A stretch of 64,000 bases of DNA from Megasphaera massiliensis (GTDB taxonomy: Bacteria; Bacillota; Negativicutes; Veillonellales; Megasphaeraceae), in the NCBI RefSeq assembly GCF_000455225.1, contig NZ_HF954537.1, forward strand, positions 733,844 to 797,843, in the 5' to 3' direction. Positions 55 to 8,681 of the stretch are shown here, in pieces; position 1 is the first letter of the stretch, and each line of letters opens with the position of its first letter. A program made the translations under genes and the position numbers. Below the pieces are notes generated by a model that was given only the letters and a program-made list of their open reading frames with translations, was not told where the DNA came from and made no database searches.

Positions 55-450
55 TCAAAAGCAGACGCCGGCCTGCAAAATGACGTTGGGATAGTAGGAA
101 AATTCACCGGTCCGTACGGCAAATTTAACGTGCGCCGATTCTTTCTTTAAATCCACATGGGGAATAAAGTCTTCTTCGGCATCTTTCAAAGTATCCCGTA
201 AATGTTCTAAGATTACGGGATTCGTTTCTTTGATTTCTTCAGCGAGTACATATTTTTCGACGACGATTTCGTCCATGATGGCGTCGAATACTTGACGGAA
301 CGTCGGTACACCGCCGACGACGGCTAAATCAATGATGGGTACCCCGCTGGGAATAGGCATGCCGGCATCACAGAGGAGAAACCGGTCTTTATGTCCCAAG
401 GCGGCTAAGGCGCCGGCCAATTGGCCATGGATGATTCCTTTTTTCTTCAT
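55..450 (-). CDS. rbsD: D-ribose pyranase / RbsD-FucU family mutarotase
   Basis: Predicted cytosolic sugar mutarotase that interconverts cyclic forms of a free pentose or deoxyhexose so that the next enzyme receives the right anomer. The 131-residue product matches the usual RbsD length. It begins MKKKGIIHGQLAGALAALGH, has the conserved LCDAGMPIP stretch near residue 31 and ends with the FYPN-like segment YYPNVILQAGV. I chose the start at 450 because AAAGGACG lies 6-10 bases upstream; a longer reading adds six residues but lacks a ribosome site. It is the last gene of the isomerase-transketolase-kinase operon, 29 bases after the kinase. RbsD or FucU specificity cannot be told from sequence. 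Confidence 0.88.
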   Translation of the reverse strand: MKKKGIIHGQLAGALAALGHKDRFLLCDAGMPIPSGVPIIDLAVVGGVPTFRQVFDAIMDEIVVEKYVLAEEIKETNPVILEHLRDTLKDAEEDFIPHVDLKKESAHVKFAVRTGEFSYYPNVILQAGVCF

Positions 451-479: not shown

Positions 480-1976
480 TCAGGCTCCTTGATGAGTCGC
501 TGCTAAGGTCTGGGAGATGGCCTTTTGCCAGCCCCCGATTAATTCACGGCGTCGGTCCCCAGCCATGGCCGGTTCATAAGAAATGCCTTTCATATCCTTG
601 AACAAGGCATCCTTATCGTACAATCCGACGGCAAGGCCGGCGGCATAAGCGGCACCGATGGCCGAAAGTTCAGCCGCTTCCGGTACGTCGACGGGACAAC
701 CGATAAGATCCGTTTGAAACTGCATGAGGTAGGCATTTTTCGTAGGGCCGCCGTCAACGCGAAGGGACGGCAGTTTGTACCCCGACTCCTTCTGCATCAG
801 CGTCGTTACATCGTTAATCTGATAGGCGATGGCATCGAGGACGGCTCGAACCATTTCTTTTTTCCCGGTTACGCGGGTAACGCCCGTATAAAGGCCCGTC
901 GCCTGACTTTCCCAATACGGGGCGCCGAGACCTGTAAAGGCCGGCACGAAATAGCTGCGGTCTTTCGGATTGGCCGCCTGGGCTAAGGCCATCGTTTCTT
1001 CCGGTGACCGGATAAGCTGTAAATCATCTTTGAGCCAGGTAATGGCAGCTCCCGTATAGTTGATATTGCCTTCAAGGACGTAGGTTGCCTTCCCCGACAG
1101 GCTCCAAGCCAGAGACGTCACCAAGCCGTGCTGGCTGTACACGGGCTTATCGCCGATATTCATCATGACCGAAGAACCCGTACCGTAGGTAGCCTTGGCC
1201 ATTCCCGGATGATGACAGGCTTGGCCGAATAAGGCCGCATGAGAATCCCCGAAGACGGCATGGATGGGAATGGCTTCCGGCAGGATGCCGTCGAAATCCG
1301 TTTTTCCATAGAAGCCGTTGGAGTCAGTCACTTCCGGTAAGGCACGGCGGTCGATACCGAAAGCCCGGCAGACATCATCGGACCAAGTCAACCGCCCGAT
1401 GTCAAAGAGCTGAGTCCGTGAAGCGTTGGAAAAATCGGTGCGGAATACCTGCCCTTTGGTCATACAGTAGACGAGCCAGCTGTCCATGGTCCCCATACAG
1501 AGATTTCCTTCGTCCATGAGTTCCTTAGCGCCTTCGACGCGGCGCAGGATCCAAGCCAATTTAGCCGCTGAAAAATAGGGCGACAAGGGTAGTCCCGTCG
1601 TATTCTTAATCAAAGAGTCAAGGCCTTTGCGGCGAAGTTCTTCACAAATCGCCGCGCCCCGCGCACACTGCCAGACGATGGCCCGATAGACGGGCTTTCC
1701 GGTCTGACGATGCCAGGCCATGGCCGTTTCACGCTGATTACTGATGCCGACAGCCTTGATGGCCTTTCCATTAATCTCGGTCTTATCCAGCATATCGCGG
1801 ATTAAATCCTTCAAATGACGCCAGATTTCATCGGAATCGTGTTCGACCCAGCCTTTTTCGTCAATATACTGCTTATGGGACTTAGCCGCCTTGTAGCAGA
1901 TGGTCCCGGCCTCGTCGAAGAGCAGCACTTTGGTGCCCTGTGTACTCTGATCGATGCCGAGAATGTAAGACTTCAT
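480..1976 (-). CDS. FGGY-family carbohydrate kinase (glycerol kinase/pentulokinase type)
   Basis: ATP-dependent sugar kinase, predicted to phosphorylate the ketose made by the isomerase encoded upstream in the operon. The 498-residue protein has the N-terminal phosphate-binding segment GIDQSTQGTKVLLFD, a TYGTGSSVMMNIG adenosine-side motif in the middle and the FGGY C-terminal signature around VDGGPTKNAYLMQFQTDL. The overall look (GNINYTGAAITWL, VWQCARG) is closer to glycerol kinase than to typical xylulokinases, but the neighbours argue for a pentulose. The ATG at 1976 starts one base after the transketolase stop, so translation is probably coupled; upstream in-frame extensions lie inside that gene. 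The substrate is unknown; D-apulose, D-ribulose and L-xylulose are all possible. Confidence 0.85.
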   Translation of the reverse strand: MKSYILGIDQSTQGTKVLLFDEAGTICYKAAKSHKQYIDEKGWVEHDSDEIWRHLKDLIRDMLDKTEINGKAIKAVGISNQRETAMAWHRQTGKPVYRAIVWQCARGAAICEELRRKGLDSLIKNTTGLPLSPYFSAAKLAWILRRVEGAKELMDEGNLCMGTMDSWLVYCMTKGQVFRTDFSNASRTQLFDIGRLTWSDDVCRAFGIDRRALPEVTDSNGFYGKTDFDGILPEAIPIHAVFGDSHAALFGQACHHPGMAKATYGTGSSVMMNIGDKPVYSQHGLVTSLAWSLSGKATYVLEGNINYTGAAITWLKDDLQLIRSPEETMALAQAANPKDRSYFVPAFTGLGAPYWESQATGLYTGVTRVTGKKEMVRAVLDAIAYQINDVTTLMQKESGYKLPSLRVDGGPTKNAYLMQFQTDLIGCPVDVPEAAELSAIGAAYAAGLAVGLYDKDALFKDMKGISYEPAMAGDRRRELIGGWQKAISQTLAATHQGA

Positions 1977-1977
1977 A

Positions 1978-2904
1978 TCAAAGCAGCTCCTTGGCAGCTT
2001 TGACGATACCTTCAGCGTCGAGTCCATAATGATGGAAGATATCAGCCGAGTTCCCCGTGACGACCGGCGCATCAGGCAGCGTCAGACTGCGGACTTTCGT
2101 CGGATATTCCGCAGCCGTAAGTTGGGCGACCATAGCACCGAGGCCACCGTAGGGAGAATGTTCTTCGACCGTCAAGATCGCCTTCGTTTCTTTGGCAGCC
2201 TTGAGAACGGCTTCCGTATCGAGGGGTTTCAAGCAGTACATGTCGAGGACGCGGACCGATTTACCTTCTGCAGCCAGCATTTCAGCTGCTTTTTTTGCTT
2301 CATAGACCAATTCACCGCAGGCGATGATGGTCAGTTCCGTCCCATCTTGCACGGTAACAGCCTTATCCATGGTAAAGTCGAGTTTGCCTTCGTCATAGAC
2401 GTCTTCGACGGCATTGCGGCCGATGCGGATATAGGCCGGTTCACTGTCGGTGACGAATTCTTTCATCAAAGCCTCTGCCAAATACTGATCGCTCGGGAAA
2501 TATACCCGAAGGCCGGGAATAGAGCCCATGGTGGCAATATCCGTCGCCGAATGATGGGTCATGCCCAAAGCACCGTAGCTGACGCCGCCGCTGATGCCGA
2601 TGAGTTTGACATTGGTATGGGAATAAGCGACGTCGACTTTCGCCTGTTCCATGCTGCGCGTCGAAAGGAAGCTTGCCGGCGATACGGCAAAGGGACGCTT
2701 GCCGGCCGAGGCCAGACCGGCACTGATGCCGACCAGGTTCTGTTCGGCAATGCCGACTTCTACGAATTGGTCGCTGTGTTCTTCGGCATAGGGGCCGAGA
2801 GCGCCGGAGCCGTGGGAATCACTGCAAAGGACGACGATATCTTTATTTACCTTGGCTTCCTCACTGAGGAATTCTGCGATTACTTTCTTAATGGCTTTGC
2901 TCAT
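1978..2904 (-). CDS. Transketolase, C-terminal (pyrimidine-binding/C) subunit
   Basis: Second half of a two-gene transketolase, 308 residues, holding the pyrimidine-binding domain and the C-terminal domain. Visible family features include the ThDP-activating glutamate region FVEVGIAEQNLVGISAGLA near residue 48, GISGGVSYGALGMTHHSATD near residue 105, and the end GNSADIFHHYGLDAEGIVKA. The ATG at 2904 overlaps the TGA of the N-terminal subunit (ATGA), the usual coupling for split transketolases. In this operon it may act on a phosphorylated pentulose instead of the general pentose-phosphate pool. It is intact, unlike its partner subunit. Confidence 0.9.
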   Translation of the reverse strand: MSKAIKKVIAEFLSEEAKVNKDIVVLCSDSHGSGALGPYAEEHSDQFVEVGIAEQNLVGISAGLASAGKRPFAVSPASFLSTRSMEQAKVDVAYSHTNVKLIGISGGVSYGALGMTHHSATDIATMGSIPGLRVYFPSDQYLAEALMKEFVTDSEPAYIRIGRNAVEDVYDEGKLDFTMDKAVTVQDGTELTIIACGELVYEAKKAAEMLAAEGKSVRVLDMYCLKPLDTEAVLKAAKETKAILTVEEHSPYGGLGAMVAQLTAAEYPTKVRSLTLPDAPVVTGNSADIFHHYGLDAEGIVKAAKELL

Positions 2905-3717
2905 AATGCTGCCTTCCTTTCGTCGAGTTCTTTCATAGCTGCTGCAACCTGATCGGCTGTCGGGACTTTGTGGTGCCAGCCGGCTTGATCTTCCATGAAG
3001 GATACGCCGCAGCCCTTCGTCGTATTGGCGATGATGACCGTCGGTTTGCCCTTCGTCCGTTTGGCAAGATCAACGGCTGCATCGATGGCATCCATGTCGT
3101 TGCCCGGAATGGACAAGACGTTCCTAGCCAAAGGAAGCCCACCGTTCTTCAGCGCTGTCCTGGCCCATGACTTCTTCCGTCGTGCCGGAAATCTGGAGGC
3201 GGTTGCGGTCGACAAAGACCGTGAGGTTGTCAAGGCCATACTGGGGACCTGCCATAGCCCCTTCCCAAACGGAACCTTCATCACATTCGCCGTCGCCTAA
3301 GACGACGTACGTCCGATAAGGACGCTGATCCATTTTCGCGGCCAAAGCCATGCCGATGGCGACGGAAAGGCCGTGACCCAAGGAGCCGCTGTTGACTTCG
3401 ATCCCGGCAATCTTGTTGTTGGGATGGCCGATAAATTTCGACAAATACTGGGAATAAGACTGGAGTTCTTCTTTCGGGAAGAATCCCTTGTCAGCCAGGA
3501 TGGTGTACAGGGCTTCGACACAATGGCCTTTACTAAGGACGAAGCGGTCGCGGTCCGGATCGTCTACCTTGTCGGGTCCGACGTTCATCTGTTTATAATA
3601 CAAGTCGACCAAGATGTCGGTAACGCTGAGGTCGCCGCCAATGTGGCCCGTTCCGGCGTGGTGAATCAGATTGACGATATCTTTGCGGATATCAATTGCT
3701 TTTTCGCGAAGATCCAT
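2901..3717 (-). pseudogene. Transketolase, N-terminal (ThDP-binding) subunit, interrupted by a one-base insertion
   Basis: The first reading frame (3717 down to 3124) encodes a normal transketolase N half: GTGHIGGDLSVTDILV, SKGHCVEALY, and the ThDP motif GDGECDEGSVWEGAM. It stops at TAG after ERWASFG. The expected continuation, VLSIPGNDMDAIDAAVDLA to DERKAAL, is found in the next frame down to 2901. Removing the T at plus-strand position 3125 changes TAG-GAA-C into TGG-AAC and restores an uninterrupted 271-residue protein reading FGWNVLSIPG. The start at 3717 has GGAGAATAAAA upstream. This is either a recent inactivating mutation or a sequencing error; the downstream genes look undamaged. Confidence 0.85.
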
Positions 3718-3719
3718 TT

Positions 3720-5120
3720 TTATTCTCCTCTCAAATATGCCTTGACGTCTTCTTCAATAGGATCATAGAGATCCGGAGCGACGCCGATATACTTACAAGC
3801 TTCATATAATACAGGGACGACGTCCTTATGGATGCCGACACAGTGGTGAATGTACGGTCCTTCTACAATTTTCGCTTCCAACCGTTTGATGTTGTCCACT
3901 TCGACCCAGAGGTAGGTCCCCATGCCGGCCGGTCCGTCGACGCCTTTAGCGTTGCCTAACAGCAGGGAATATTCGCCGTTGTCACCGTCGAAGCGAACCA
4001 GGCTGATATCGCCGTGCTTAGCTTCGGCCGTCAGGCTGCCCGGATAGTCGAAGGCTAAGGGATACGTCAGCTTCGGCGTTTCTTTGGCTACCGAAATAGG
4101 CCAAGGGCCGCAGTGCTGCAGGAGTTCCCCGTTTTCGATATCGGGATGACGGATGGTCCAATCGGCAAAGAAGGATCGCGTTCCGTCGAGAGCGGCCGCT
4201 TCTACCAAGAGGGCTGTAATGGCACCGTGGATATCCGTTTCACAGACCATGGGAATGCCTATTTCATTGAGCATGGCATTGGCTGCACAGGGCATGACGC
4301 CGAGTTCACCCTGGAGGGCGTTCCAACACTGGATGGCACCGGCATTACAGCCGTATTTTTCCATCAGCCCTTTCATGGCTACGTACAGACCGGCGACATT
4401 TTCGACTTCGTCATCTTTAATGCGGACATCCATGTGGGAGCGGATGTAGGCGACGGCCTTGTCAACTTCCGTCTTTTCGGCTTTGGCCTCGGCGACGGCT
4501 TCTGTCAGTTCCGGCATCGGAATCGGAGCCAGTTGAATGTTGAACTTTTCTAAGAGTTCCCCTTCATTGCACATGGTCGACCAGAAATCGTAAGGACGAG
4601 GACCGATCTGCAGGATACGAATGTTGCGGAAGGTCTTGACGACGTTACAGACTGCCAGGAAATCCTTGATTCCCCGTTCAAAGACGGGATCATCGAGGCG
4701 ACAGTTGGTCATGTAGGTAAAGGGCACTCTGAAACGGCGCAGTACCTTGCCGGTAGCAAAGAGGCCGCACTGGGTATCGCGCAGGCGGATCCCCTTTTCA
4801 TCAGGCCGTTCATCGAGGGGGCCCCACAAGAGGACGGGGACGTTCAAGTCTTTGGCCAGGCGGGCACATTCATATTCGGTTCCGAAATTACAGTGCGGCA
4901 GGAACAGGCCGTCAATCTTTTCTGCTTTGAACTTTTCGACAATCTTCAGCCGGTCCTTTTCATCATAGAGCAGGCCTTCTTCATTGATATCATCGATATC
5001 GACGAAGGAGATTCCCAACTCTTCCAGCTTCTGTTTCGTCAGTCCTCGATACTTGACGGCATCGGGGGCACTGAAAATGCTGCGCCGGGTCGGTGCATAA
5101 CCTAATTTAATCGTAGTCAT
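3720..5120 (-). CDS. L-fucose/L-arabinose isomerase-family protein
   Basis: Predicted aldose-ketose isomerase, first gene of the leftward sugar operon, expected to convert the imported aldose to the ketose that the FGGY kinase phosphorylates. The 466-residue protein shows the family layout: a Rossmann-like N half and a C-terminal barrel with the likely metal ligands in GELGVMPCAANAMLNE (about 285) and in VCETDIHGA. The start at 5120 is set by AAAGGAGG with 7 bases of spacing. Expression is probably from the TTGAAA-17-TATAAT promoter at 5179-5207. It is not close enough by eye to FucI or AraA to assign a substrate. Confidence 0.8.
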   Translation of the reverse strand: MTTIKLGYAPTRRSIFSAPDAVKYRGLTKQKLEELGISFVDIDDINEEGLLYDEKDRLKIVEKFKAEKIDGLFLPHCNFGTEYECARLAKDLNVPVLLWGPLDERPDEKGIRLRDTQCGLFATGKVLRRFRVPFTYMTNCRLDDPVFERGIKDFLAVCNVVKTFRNIRILQIGPRPYDFWSTMCNEGELLEKFNIQLAPIPMPELTEAVAEAKAEKTEVDKAVAYIRSHMDVRIKDDEVENVAGLYVAMKGLMEKYGCNAGAIQCWNALQGELGVMPCAANAMLNEIGIPMVCETDIHGAITALLVEAAALDGTRSFFADWTIRHPDIENGELLQHCGPWPISVAKETPKLTYPLAFDYPGSLTAEAKHGDISLVRFDGDNGEYSLLLGNAKGVDGPAGMGTYLWVEVDNIKRLEAKIVEGPYIHHCVGIHKDVVPVLYEACKYIGVAPDLYDPIEEDVKAYLRGE

Positions 5121-5178: not shown

Positions 5179-5207
5179 ATTATAAATTATTTAATTAAAA
5201 ATTTCAA
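5179..5207 (-). promoter_or_regulatory. Sigma-70 promoter for the leftward sugar operon
   Basis: On the minus strand a -35 TTGAAA (5202-5207) and a perfect -10 TATAAT (5179-5184) are separated by exactly 17 bases. The spacer contains the palindrome TTTAATTAAA (5190-5199), a candidate operator shared with the divergent promoter. Confidence 0.75.
5190..5199. promoter_or_regulatory. Candidate operator, palindrome TTTAATTAAA (copy 1)
   Basis: Perfect 10-bp palindrome inside the spacer of the leftward promoter. A second perfect copy lies in the rightward promoter and a 9-of-10 copy in front of the LacI gene. The likely ligand is the LacI-type regulator at 7641, although LacI operators usually have a central CG, so binding by this protein is inference. 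Confidence 0.5.
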
Positions 5208-5335
5208 TAGTTTAAATAAAAATTTTCCCGATTGTTTTCAAGGCTTTCACATGTAATATATAATAAAATTCATTATATAGCGTCATTTATGCCGATAATA
5301 CATCGAAATTTAAATGATTTTCCGATATAATCCTC

Positions 5336-5364
5336 TTGATTTTAATTAAATTTAATGGTAATAT
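5336..5364 (+). promoter_or_regulatory. Sigma-70 promoter for the GPH transporter gene
   Basis: TTGATT (5336-5341) and TAATAT (5359-5364) are separated by 17 bases. The last base of the -35 is the first base of the second TTTAATTAAA palindrome (5341-5350), so a bound repressor would cover the spacer. Confidence 0.7.
5341..5350. promoter_or_regulatory. Candidate operator, palindrome TTTAATTAAA (copy 2)
   Basis: Second perfect copy of the palindrome, again placed between -35 and -10, on the rightward arm of the divergent sugar promoter region. Confidence 0.5.
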
Positions 5365-5418
5365 TTAGCATATAGTTTAACTAACGGTTTTAATTATTTT
5401 AAAAGGAGTGCGATACAT

Positions 5419-6798
5419 ATGCAACCTGCAGCTGATCACATCAGTATCCGCGAAAAAATCTGTTACGGCCTCGGAGATTCTTCGGCCAACATCTTCTTCG
5501 GTATGACCATGATGTTTCTTCCCTATTTCTACACCGACGTCGTCGGCTTGACGGCCAGCGCCATGGGGGCCTTATTCCTCATCGCTCGTTTAGTCGATGC
5601 CTTTTCGGATCCGATTATCGGCAACTTTGCCGACCGCCACGAAACGAAACACGGTCATTACCGTCCCTTCTTACTGTACTTAGCCATCCCTTACGGATTA
5701 TCTTGCTTCTTGGTCTTTTTGGCTCCCGACTTATCGTATACAGGGAAATTGATTTACGCCTTTGTAACCTATATTTTCTTGATCCTGATGTATGCCAGCA
5801 CCGTCGTACCTTATGTCGGCCTGCTATCGGTCTTGACCGATAATCCGGCAGAACGCTTGTCTATCAACTCCTACCGCTTCCCCTTGGCAAAATCGGCCTT
5901 CCTACTCTGCTCGGCCGTCGTCCCCATGTTCGTTGCAACGTACGACAAAGCCCACGAAGCCCAGGCATACAGCCACGCCATGATCATCATCGGCATCCTC
6001 GCCGCCTGCTGTACCTTAGCCTGCTTCTTCGGTACGAAAGAACGCAGCCATCCGCTTATCGTCAAAGACGAAAACGACACTCTCTTCTCTAAAATTAAAA
6101 TCATTGCTAAGACCCGAACGCTCCGCAGTTTCTACATCTTCTTTGCCTTGACTCAGGCCGCCTTCACCTTTAAAGGCAGCTCCGCCATCTATTACGCCAA
6201 GTATTATTTGGCCCAGAACGATGCCTATTTAACGGGTCTCCTGTCGGCCTTCTCCATTGCTGGCATCGTCGCTCCGATTGTCTCTATGTGGCTCATTCGC
6301 AAAAAAGTATTCAACAAACTGGCCATGCTCCGCGTCGCAACCTTAGGCGCTGCCATAACGGCCGTTCCGATTCTCATCGTTCCGCCGGAACACTATCTCC
6401 TGTCCTCACTGTTCCTCATTTTGTCGACCTTCTTCGGTGAACTCGGTATCGTCGTCTACTGGGCCCTGCCGGCAGACTGTGCCGACATGTGCCAGCTTAA
6501 ATTCAACAAGAAGATGGCCGGCGTCCTCGGTGCCGTCGCCCTCTTCTCCCAGAAATTTGCCATGAGCCTCGTCGGTGCCGGCATCGGCCTGATCCTGACT
6601 TTCGTCAGCTATCAGCCTGGTGCCGCCATTACCCCGGCCGTCGCCAGCGGCATCCTGGCTATTACGGCAGCCCTCCCCATCGCCTGCCACGTCATCAGCT
6701 ATTACTTCCTCAACCAGTACGACCTCGACGAAGCAGCCGTTCGTAAAATTCACTTGGAATTGGCCGGCTTGTATGCCCAGGCCGAACAGGCTAATTAA
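5419..6798 (+). CDS. GPH-family (glycoside-pentoside-hexuronide) cation symporter
   Basis: Inner-membrane sugar:cation symporter of the major facilitator superfamily, 459 residues with about twelve hydrophobic segments. The N-terminal part has the family pattern: KICYGLGDSSANIFF, then DAFSDPIIGNFADRHETKHGHYRPF near residues 69-96, matching the conserved loop of MelB/XylP-type carriers. The ATG at 5419 has AAAAGGAG upstream. It is divergent from the isomerase operon and probably imports that operon's substrate. A pentose or pentoside is the natural guess from the neighbouring transketolase, but the exact sugar is unknown. Confidence 0.88.
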   Translation: MQPAADHISIREKICYGLGDSSANIFFGMTMMFLPYFYTDVVGLTASAMGALFLIARLVDAFSDPIIGNFADRHETKHGHYRPFLLYLAIPYGLSCFLVFLAPDLSYTGKLIYAFVTYIFLILMYASTVVPYVGLLSVLTDNPAERLSINSYRFPLAKSAFLLCSAVVPMFVATYDKAHEAQAYSHAMIIIGILAACCTLACFFGTKERSHPLIVKDENDTLFSKIKIIAKTRTLRSFYIFFALTQAAFTFKGSSAIYYAKYYLAQNDAYLTGLLSAFSIAGIVAPIVSMWLIRKKVFNKLAMLRVATLGAAITAVPILIVPPEHYLLSSLFLILSTFFGELGIVVYWALPADCADMCQLKFNKKMAGVLGAVALFSQKFAMSLVGAGIGLILTFVSYQPGAAITPAVASGILAITAALPIACHVISYYFLNQYDLDEAAVRKIHLELAGLYAQAEQAN

Positions 6799-6833
6799 AC
6801 CCAATCACGCTATGAAAGGAAGGATTTCTACCC

Positions 6834-7433
6834 ATGGATAAAAGAACGATCATCAGCATCAGTCGTCAATACGGCAGCGGCGGCCGTGAAGTCGCCCAGC
6901 TTCTCGCTAAAAAGACGGGGTTCCATCTGTATGACCGCCAAATCATCGATTCGGCGGCCAAAGAACTCGGCATCAGCAACTGGACGGAAGAGCAGTTAAA
7001 AGCCCTCGAAACGAGCGAACCGGCTCCCCTCGGCTTCATCCCTTTCTACTCCATCGGTGCCGATGAGGGGCCGTCGGACACGAGCATGTTCGTCGCTGAA
7101 TCGAAAATCATCCGTCAATTGGCCAAAGCCGGGTCCTGCATCATCCTCGGCCGCTGCGGCGACTTCGTCCTGAGAGACTTTTCCAAACACTATTCCTTCT
7201 TTATCTGCGCCGACGACGACTTTCGCACCGAGCGCGGCCGTACGGAATATGAGGGTAAGAGCCTCCAAGAAATCAAGGCCGAAGACCAGAAACGGGCCGA
7301 CTATTACGAATACTATACGGGAGAGCGCTGGGGACAGCCTGAAAAATATTCCTTGTCCATCAATGCCTCAAAAATCTCCCTCGACAAGGCCGCTGACTTG
7401 ATCATCCGCTACGTCGAACTCCTTCAGGCATAA
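6834..7433 (+). CDS. Cytidylate kinase-like family protein
   Basis: A 199-residue P-loop NTPase of the cytidylate-kinase-like group. It begins with ISISRQYGSGGREVAQLLA, a glycine-rich nucleotide-binding loop typical of this family, followed by YDRQIIDSAAKELG and a central GRCGDFVLRD segment. AGGAAGG precedes the ATG at 6834. It sits 35 bases after the transporter gene and ends in front of a large hairpin, so it is probably cotranscribed with the transporter. Family members' true substrates are mostly untested; a role in nucleotide or small-molecule phosphorylation is inference. Confidence 0.8.
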   Translation: MDKRTIISISRQYGSGGREVAQLLAKKTGFHLYDRQIIDSAAKELGISNWTEEQLKALETSEPAPLGFIPFYSIGADEGPSDTSMFVAESKIIRQLAKAGSCIILGRCGDFVLRDFSKHYSFFICADDDFRTERGRTEYEGKSLQEIKAEDQKRADYYEYYTGERWGQPEKYSLSINASKISLDKAADLIIRYVELLQA

Positions 7434-7435
7434 CA

Positions 7436-7523
7436 AAAAAGAGCCTATCCTCCGCCGGTCGCCTCCTAAACAGCTGCCATATGCAGACTGGATGAGGTAC
7501 CACCCGGAAGAAAGGCTCTTTTT
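7436..7523 (+). terminator. Large terminator-like hairpin after the transporter/kinase pair
   Basis: An 11-base arm AAAAAGAGCCT (7436-7446) pairs perfectly with AGGCTCTTTTT (7513-7523), closing a loop of 66 bases that itself contains CTGC/GCAG. The right arm supplies the U-run for plus-strand transcripts. The loop is unusually long for a plain intrinsic terminator. Confidence 0.55.
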
Positions 7524-7574
7524 CTGTCTAAAGTCTATTTCTGACTTTACTATCATTTTATGACGTGCTACACT

Positions 7575-7596
7575 TTTAATTGAATCGATTTATAAT
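7575..7596 (+). promoter_or_regulatory. LacI gene promoter -10 with TTTAATTGAA element
   Basis: A perfect -10 TATAAT lies at 7591-7596, but no good -35 is present 16-18 bases upstream. TTTAATTGAA at 7575-7584 is a 9-of-10 match to the palindrome found in both sugar promoters and occupies the same spacer position, which suggests autoregulation. Confidence 0.5.
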
Positions 7597-7640: not shown

Positions 7641-8681
7641 ATGGCAACAGTGACCATCAAAGACATTGCAGAACAACTGGGAGTTTCTCCGGCCACGGTC
7701 TCTCTTGCTTTAAACGGACGCCCCGGCGTCAACGAAGAAACGCGTCTTGCCGTATTGAACCTGGCCAACCGCCTCGGGTACCGCGGCACGACGAGCAAAA
7801 AGGCCGCTGCCCCTCAAGGCGTCATCAATTTTTTAATCTACCGTAAATCAGGCAGCATCATCACCAGTACCCAATTCTTCACCCGCCTCGTCGTCGCCGT
7901 CGAAAAAGCGGCCCGGGCCCATCACTACACCTTGACCATCACCTACTGCGACGGTCAGGATCAACTGGCGTCGTGCATTGCCGAAGCGGCAGCCGCTCAG
8001 TCGTCGGGTATCGTCATGCTGGGTACTGAAATGGAACATGACGACTTGCCTATCGTCAAGGACGCCCCCCTTCCCATCGTCGTCCTCGACAATGAACTGA
8101 CGGCTTCCCCTCTCGATATGGTCTCCATCCATAATTTAGACGGCGTATGGCAGGCCGTTCACTACCTTCATGACCAAGGACTGAAGGATATCGGCTACCT
8201 GCGCAGCTCGGTTCCGATCACGAATTTTGAAATGCGCTACCTGGGCTATACCTACGCGATGAATCAGTTCCATCAAAAACTGGACGCCACTAAGGTCTAT
8301 GAACTGTCGCCATCCCTCGAAGCAGCTCAACAAGATATGAATGCTGTTTTAGAACGAGGCGGCGCCCTTCCCGAAGCCTTTATCGCCGACAATGACCTCA
8401 TCGCCTTGGGAGCGATGCGTGCCCTGCAGCAACGAGGTCTGCGCATTCCGGAAGACATTTCCATCATCGGCTTCGACAACATTCCCTTGGCCGAATATGC
8501 GCAGCCGCCTCTGAGTTCCATCGAAGTCCCCTGTGAAAACTTAGGAAAATCCGCCGTGGAAACCCTCCGCTGGCGAATCCGCAACCCGAAGGCGACGCCG
8601 CGCAACGTAGCCACGGGGACCGAGCTGATTGTCCGAGAAAGCGTTCCTCAAAAAACGTCGTCAGAAACAGCACATGAATAA
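7641..8681 (+). CDS. LacI-family transcriptional regulator
   Basis: DNA-binding repressor or activator of 346 residues. The N-terminal helix-turn-helix TIKDIAEQLGVSPATVSLALN is textbook LacI, followed by the hinge and a periplasmic-binding-protein-like ligand domain (VINFLIYRKSG, GIVMLGTE, DNDLIALGAMRALQQRG, IIGFDNIPLAEYAQPPLSSI). The ATG at 7641 has GCAGGAGGT upstream. Its position beside the sugar operon suggests it senses the imported sugar or a phosphorylated intermediate and controls the divergent promoters near 5.2-5.4 kb. It may also control itself through the TTTAATTGAA element. Confidence 0.93.
   Translation: MATVTIKDIAEQLGVSPATVSLALNGRPGVNEETRLAVLNLANRLGYRGTTSKKAAAPQGVINFLIYRKSGSIITSTQFFTRLVVAVEKAARAHHYTLTITYCDGQDQLASCIAEAAAAQSSGIVMLGTEMEHDDLPIVKDAPLPIVVLDNELTASPLDMVSIHNLDGVWQAVHYLHDQGLKDIGYLRSSVPITNFEMRYLGYTYAMNQFHQKLDATKVYELSPSLEAAQQDMNAVLERGGALPEAFIADNDLIALGAMRALQQRGLRIPEDISIIGFDNIPLAEYAQPPLSSIEVPCENLGKSAVETLRWRIRNPKATPRNVATGTELIVRESVPQKTSSETAHE

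What the first reader, a model, noticed from the sequence alone, without database searches (positions are those of the whole stretch)
5179..7596. One palindrome sits in the spacer of all three promoters of the sugar locus
TTTAATTAAA lies between -35 and -10 in both divergent promoters (5190-5199, 5341-5350), and TTTAATTGAA occupies the same place before the LacI gene (7575-7584). Placement in three spacers is unlikely to be chance even in AT-rich DNA, and suggests a regulon-specific operator without the usual LacI central CG.
Basis: partly seen in the sequence, partly recalled or inferred. Interest (0 to 1): 0.55.

Follow-up and report, generated by a model that had tools for sequence, protein, structure and literature searches.

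The report
AT-only operator of hinge-less LacI repressor
A ten-letter A/T palindrome repeated in the control regions of a sugar-use gene cluster in a gut-type bacterium is very probably the landing site of the cluster's own LacI-type repressor, which lacks the DNA-bending hinge of ordinary LacI proteins and so does not need their central CG.

Summary
The palindrome is real and not chance. Exact TTTAATTAAA occurs at 4 places in the 2.74-Mb genome, 2 of them here. In 11 related loci with the same genes it occurs 16 times in 18 promoter intergenic regions (5.6 kb) and never in the other 159.7 kb; shuffles give a mean of 0.33, and no other 10-bp palindrome exceeds 2. Six further loci gave 3 exact copies, all before the sugar genes or lacI; two had none. 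One correction: two spacers (isomerase, transporter) are solid, but at lacI the promoter conserved in the 61% relative places the site just after the -10, over the start. A further site lies 21 bp from the isomerase one; copies 21-22 bp apart recur in relatives. The LacI protein lacks the hinge Ala/Leu that contacts a central CG in ordinary LacI proteins; AlphaFold models no hinge helix in it but does in a hinge-Leu control. LacI repressors without hinge leucine and with CG-less operators are already described ('EbgR-like', PMC2329647), but those have odd operators with a central C/G. This is a new clade-specific variant: even and AT-only. Binding, repression and effector are inferred; D-apiose is a weak guess.

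The parts
5190..5199 (.). Operator copy 1, TTTAATTAAA, in the spacer of the isomerase-operon promoter
   Evidence: identical in L001 and L002; aligned to an exact copy in L110
5211..5220 (-). Secondary site, TTTATTTAAA read on the - strand (one mismatch), just upstream of the isomerase -35 and 21 bp from copy 1
   Evidence: an exact copy lies in the equivalent place in L110 at 22 bp
5341..5350 (.). Operator copy 2, TTTAATTAAA, in the spacer of the transporter promoter
   Evidence: identical in L001, L002 and L110
7575..7584 (+). Operator copy 3, TTTAATTGAA (one mismatch), at the lacI promoter, probably directly behind the -10
   Evidence: reads TTTAATGGAA (two mismatches) in L110
5179..5207 (-). 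Isomerase-operon promoter TTGAAA-17-TATAAT
   Evidence: conserved in 3 of 3 Megasphaera
5336..5364 (+). Transporter promoter TTGATT-17-TAATAT
   Evidence: TTGATT-17-TATTAT in L110
7546..7574 (+). Probable lacI promoter TTTACT-17-TACACT with extended -10 (TGC)
7641..8681 (+). LacI-family regulator, Leu at recognition-helix position 22, no hinge Ala/Leu
5419..6798 (+). GPH-family sugar:cation symporter, presumed regulated
3720..5120 (-). Sugar isomerase-like gene, first of the presumed regulated operon (weak, below-cutoff match to sulfoquinovose isomerase SftI)
2901..3717 (-). Transketolase N-terminal subunit gene, frame-shifted in this assembly
1978..2904 (-). Transketolase C-terminal subunit gene
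480..1976 (-). FGGY carbohydrate kinase (glycerol-kinase-like)
55..435 (-). RbsD/FucU-type mutarotase

Best explanation
TTTAATTAAA is the operator of the locus's own LacI-family repressor. Without the inducing sugar a dimer binds the 10-bp even palindrome lying between or beside the -35 and -10 hexamers and blocks RNA polymerase at the isomerase-operon and transporter promoters, and through the weaker TTTAATTGAA at its own gene. Copies 21-22 bp apart (two helical turns) suggest two dimers side by side. A pathway sugar or intermediate would release it. The operator has no central CG because this LacI clade has lost the hinge Ala/Leu and, in the model, the hinge helix, so it probably reads DNA with the helix-turn-helix alone. 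Shown: the sites, their conservation with these genes, their promoter positions, the missing hinge residues. Inferred: which protein binds, repression, cooperativity, the inducer.
For: Rare in the own genome: 4 exact places, 2 of them here, 1 beside an integrase gene and 1 inside a coding sequence. 16 exact copies in 18 promoter intergenic regions of 11 relatives, 0 in the other 159,724 bases, next best of 1024 palindromes 2 copies, maximum 4 in 500 shuffles. 3 exact copies in 6 further loci, all before lacI or the kinase-isomerase genes. 0 exact in 16 loci of related regulators outside this clade (63,792 bases) and 1 in 65 loci of other LacI relatives (752,071 bases). Regulators of the group form one clade, 100/99; all 10 have Leu at position 22 and none has the hinge Ala-x-x-Leu. 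No hinge helix at 46-59 in the model, present at 51-58 in the hinge-Leu control L014. Loss of the hinge leucine goes with loss of the central CG in described LacI proteins (PMC2329647).
Against: No binding or expression data. Copies are missing where expected: lacI in L128 and L129 has no exact copy, and of the four 40%-identical regulators with the same enzymes only one has an exact copy. In AT-rich relatives the exact word is not clearly enriched genome-wide (G063 47 against 39 for the reversed control; G236 30 against 43), so site density alone cannot give specificity there. The list of intergenic regions was drawn up after the matches had been seen. The promoters are consensus matches.
Confidence: 0.83

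Rival explanations
1. The palindrome is an operator of this locus but is bound by another regulator (a paralogous LacI or a general regulator), not by the adjacent LacI.
For: No binding data; relatives with 40%-identical regulators and the same enzymes mostly lack the exact site.
Against: Site and this LacI clade occur together; the site lies before lacI itself in several relatives; it is absent from the rest of the neighbourhoods and from loci of related regulators outside the clade, unlike a general regulator's site.
Confidence: 0.09
2. Chance in AT-rich promoters: a word that spacers and -10 surroundings produce by composition.
For: Both window regions are AT-rich; in AT-rich relatives the exact word is common genome-wide.
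Against: 16 copies against a shuffle mean of 0.33, and against at most 2 for every other 10-bp palindrome in the same regions; tandem copies 21-22 bp apart; conservation where flanking sequence has changed.
Confidence: 0.03
3. The palindrome is functional but not repressive: an activator site or part of the promoter structure itself.
For: In L111 rbsD both copies lie upstream of the -35, as activator sites do.
Against: Most copies lie in the spacer or directly behind the -10, where a bound dimer would block polymerase; a promoter element would be expected far beyond one gene cluster.
Confidence: 0.05

Closest known systems
EbgR-like LacI proteins of lactobacilli and streptococci (GalR, LacR, RafR), Francke et al. 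2008, PMC2329647
   Same: No hinge leucine, operator without central CG, TTTA/TAAA-like half-sites (TTT AGT AAA, TTT ACT AAA in that paper's table), local sugar regulon
   Different: Their operators are odd palindromes with one central C or G, they have Arg at position 22 and an insertion before helix 3 that P0001 lacks; P0001's clade is separate from them
LacI-family regulators with even operators whose central pair is not CG (49 of 1303) or degenerate (29 of 1303), Ravcheev et al. 2014, PMC4052901
   Same: Even palindrome without central CG; 22-bp tandem spacing is one of that paper's peaks
   Different: The section read does not list them, so I could not tell whether any has this sequence
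Canonical LacI/PurR/CcpA
   Same: Fold, family domains, autoregulation and local control of sugar genes
   Different: Hinge helix with Leu, Arg-G contact, central CG, longer operator
Spirochaete relatives L003-L005
   Same: No PN-x-x-A-x-x-L hinge, Leu at 22, divergent promoter beside a TTTA/TAAA palindrome
   Different: TTTA-T/C-TAAA, odd, next to TTGACA; a different gene set

Membership tests
LacI/GalR family | LacI helix-turn-helix (PF00356) plus periplasmic-binding-protein-like sensor domain | tested here: met
   PF00356 47 bits (cut-off 27), PF13377 121 bits
Canonical LacI (CcpA-like) | Hinge helix with Ala and Leu that contacts a central CG | tested here: not met
   Residues absent; no helix at 46-59 in the model, helix 51-58 in control L014
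Canonical LacI (CcpA-like) | Even operator with central CG | tested here: not met
   Central dinucleotide of the palindrome is AT
EbgR-like subfamily | Lack of hinge Ala/Leu | tested here: met
EbgR-like subfamily | Conserved insertion in the helix-turn-helix domain | tested here: not met
   Alignment column filled in L006, L009, L018, L022, L067, gap in P0001
EbgR-like subfamily | Odd operator with a single central C or G | tested here: not met
   Even TTTAATTAAA
EbgR-like subfamily | Common ancestry | tested here: not met
   EbgR-like rows form their own branch 100/100; P0001's wider clade 98/92
LacI proteins with Arg22 replaced (RbsR/MalI type) | T instead of G at operator position -6 | tested here: inconclusive
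   Leu22 is present, but position -6 is mixed: A 16, T 14, G 8, C 2 of 40 half-sites
D-apiose catabolic cluster (AplK, AptA, AptB) | Apulose kinase, split transketolase and apiose isomerase | tested here: inconclusive
   40%, 48% and 37% identity to E. coli SE15 aplK, aptA, aptB; the kinase's best solved structures are glycerol kinases; ApsI was not compared

The most novel reading that the evidence does not exclude
A LacI clade has given up the DNA-bending hinge-helix mode and reads a short, purely A/T palindrome with the helix-turn-helix alone. Sister clades may keep the TTTA half-site but change the gap between halves (two bases in Megasphaera and its relatives, one in the spirochaetes, perhaps none in the 40%-identical group), so operator spacing would have evolved together with linker length.
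Probability: 0.3. Interest if true: 0.55.

Novelty: new variant of a known kind. Interest (0 to 1): 0.42.

Why it matters
It gives a regulator clade of Negativicutes a concrete, testable operator. It adds a third operator type to the LacI family's recognition rules: hinge-less and even, beside the canonical CG type and the odd hinge-less EbgR-like type. It offers a natural set of proteins in which loss of the hinge, the residue at position 22 and the operator centre can be compared directly. Practically, it lets the regulon be drawn in other genomes with these genes.

Tried and rejected
The overlapping + strand promoter TCGAAA-17-TATAAT was rejected because its -10 is lost in both Megasphaera relatives.

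Other palindromes in the divergent region (TATATAATAAAATTCATTATATA 5257-5279; TAGTTTAACTA 5373-5383) were considered as the real operator and dropped: neither is kept in L110.

Helical phasing between the two divergent operators was considered: 151 bp in the window, 136 and 158 bp in L110 (arithmetic coordinates), so no constant phase and no looping claim.

Sulfoquinovose as substrate: the isomerase matches the SftI model at 102 bits against a cut-off of 700, and a kinase and RbsD are present; not adopted. D-apiose kept only as a guess.

Calibration: promoter calls are consensus matches; the top-scored promoter has the motif in its spacer in 11 of 17, and I count 13 only by letting conservation override the score at the window transporter promoter and the parallel TTGTGG/TTGTAG-17-TATACT architecture of L113, L115 and L133 override it at L114. 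L132 is a near-copy of L113. The core letters are fixed by how the sites were chosen. A regex attempt to extract regulators failed for most loci and was replaced by tblastn.

Papers: PMC2329647 (passages by search, section 9 in full); PMC4052901 (abstract and outline, section 9 in full); PMC2978694 (abstract and outline, passages by search); PMC13001218 (passages by search). All other papers were seen only in search listings. Searches for a published TTTAATTAAA LacI operator or for LacI regulons in Megasphaera/Selenomonas found none; subscription journals and the RegPrecise database were not searchable. Position 22 is E. coli LacI numbering, recalled; it coincides with P0001's own numbering.

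Full report
Where it is. The window lies in a 2.74-Mb genome (G000) of the same genus as two Megasphaera records carrying the same locus. The locus has, on the - strand, an isomerase-like gene, split transketolase genes, an FGGY kinase and an RbsD-type mutarotase; on the + strand, a GPH-family symporter, a cytidylate-kinase-like gene and a LacI-family regulator. Only 3 of 61 genomes searched in the order, the own one included, carry the LacI.

Observation. TTTAATTAAA is at 5190-5199 and 5341-5350 and TTTAATTGAA at 7575-7584. The first two lie in 17-bp spacers of the isomerase and transporter promoters. For lacI the TATAAT at 7591 has a poor -35 and is CTTAAT in the 61% relative L110, whereas TTTACT-17-TACACT with an extended -10 is kept there as TTTACT-17-TAGACT. 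The lacI copy therefore more likely lies directly behind the -10. A fourth site with one mismatch (5211-5220) lies 21 bp from 5190.

Is it chance? The exact word occurs at 4 places in the whole genome: two here, one beside an integrase gene, one within a coding sequence. Two or more exact copies arose in the divergent region in 1 of 2000 dinucleotide shuffles.

Relatives. A search of 300 genomes of the class found 32 with a match at E 1e-45, own genome included. I fetched larger regions for 11 of these: the 7 nearest outside the genus (44-61% identity) and 4 at about 40%. The promoter intergenic regions of these 11 (18 regions, 5625 bases) hold 16 exact copies, spread over 7 of the 11 loci; the other 159,724 bases hold none. 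In 500 shuffles the mean was 0.33 and the maximum 4; every other 10-bp palindrome reached at most 2. I listed the regions after seeing the matches; the zero elsewhere would be at risk only from matches outside the list, and there were none. Of the seven 44-61% loci, six have an exact copy and the seventh (L113) has TTTAATTGAA at lacI; of the four 40% loci, one has an exact copy.

Second set. A later search of 189 genomes of one family gave six loci not used before, in 5 genomes. Three have an exact copy (L130 before the kinase-isomerase genes, L131 and L133 before lacI); one (L132, near-copy of L113) has TTTAATTGAA; L128 and L129 have neither. The six hold 3 exact copies in 55,851 bases. As controls, 16 loci of more distant Negativicutes regulators (63,792 bases) have none, and 65 loci of other LacI relatives (752,071 bases) have one. 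Against the reading: in AT-rich relatives the word is common genome-wide and not clearly above the reversed control.

Position. Over 17 promoters with a site, the best-scored promoter has the site in the spacer in 11; letting conservation or parallel architecture decide two doubtful cases gives 13. Three have it directly behind the -10 and one upstream of the -35. Tandem copies stand 21-22 bp apart in L110, L111, L112 and L116 and, with one mismatch in one copy, in L131, L133 and the window; 42-44 bp pairs bracket the isomerase promoter in L112 and L111. Ravcheev et al. report 22 bp as a peak of tandem LacI sites and read multiples of the helix step as cooperative binding (PMC4052901).

Regulator. 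The ten regulators of this group form one clade (100/99), within a wider clade (98/92) apart from the EbgR-like one. All ten have Leu at position 22 and none has the hinge Ala-x-x-Leu; the linker alignment is loose, but the hinge motif is absent from every one of these rows. AlphaFold models P0001 with coil at 46-59, while the hinge-Leu control L014 has a helix at 51-58. Both are low-confidence there (pLDDT under 50 at 50-56 and at 51-55), so this is support, not proof.

What is known. In LacI, PurR and CcpA the hinge leucine inserts into a central CG (PMC2978694, passages). Of 1303 studied regulators, 1173 have a CG centre; 49 have a different and 29 a degenerate central pair (PMC4052901). 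EbgR-like LacI proteins lack the leucine and bind odd palindromes with one central C or G, some shown by experiment (PMC2329647). So the absence of CG is not new; an even, AT-only operator in a separate hinge-less clade is, as far as the papers searched show, a new variant.

Mechanism. Shown: sites, conservation with the genes, promoter positions, missing hinge residues. Inferred: binding by this LacI, repression by blocking polymerase, cooperation of paired dimers, release by a pathway sugar. The substrate is unknown: the transketolase halves and kinase are 48%, 37% and 40% identical to E. coli SE15 aptA, aptB and aplK of D-apiose breakdown (PMC13001218), but the kinase matches glycerol kinases best among solved structures.

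Verdict. New variant of a known kind, moderate interest.

Noticed in passing
2901-3717 (- strand): The transketolase N-subunit gene is frame-shifted by one base in this assembly; it is intact in L001 and L002. Sequencing error or pseudogene not decided.
   Followed up: partly
5257-5279: TATATAATAAAATTCATTATATA, a 23-bp odd palindrome between the divergent promoters, unchanged in all three Megasphaera though bases beside it vary; not kept in L110.
   Followed up: partly
5373-5383: TAGTTTAACTA, an odd palindrome just after the transporter promoter, conserved in the three Megasphaera, absent from L110.
   Followed up: no
L003 about 4714, L004 about 4697, L005 about 435: TTTA-T/C-TAAA beside TTGACA in the divergent promoter of spirochaete relatives whose LacI also lacks the PN-x-x-A-x-x-L hinge motif: same half-site, one base between halves.
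   Followed up: partly
L090-L093, within 350 bp upstream of lacI: The odd palindrome TAAAA.TTTTA occurs upstream of lacI in 4 of 4 loci of the 40%-identical group; AT-rich sequence, significance not tested.
   Followed up: no
6834-7433: A cytidylate-kinase-like gene (PF13189) lies between transporter and lacI in the three Megasphaera; the search of the 11 larger relative loci returned no match to it (query included).
   Followed up: no
L074 around 1501: Of the two other exact TTTAATTAAA copies in the genome, one lies upstream of an integrase gene.
   Followed up: no
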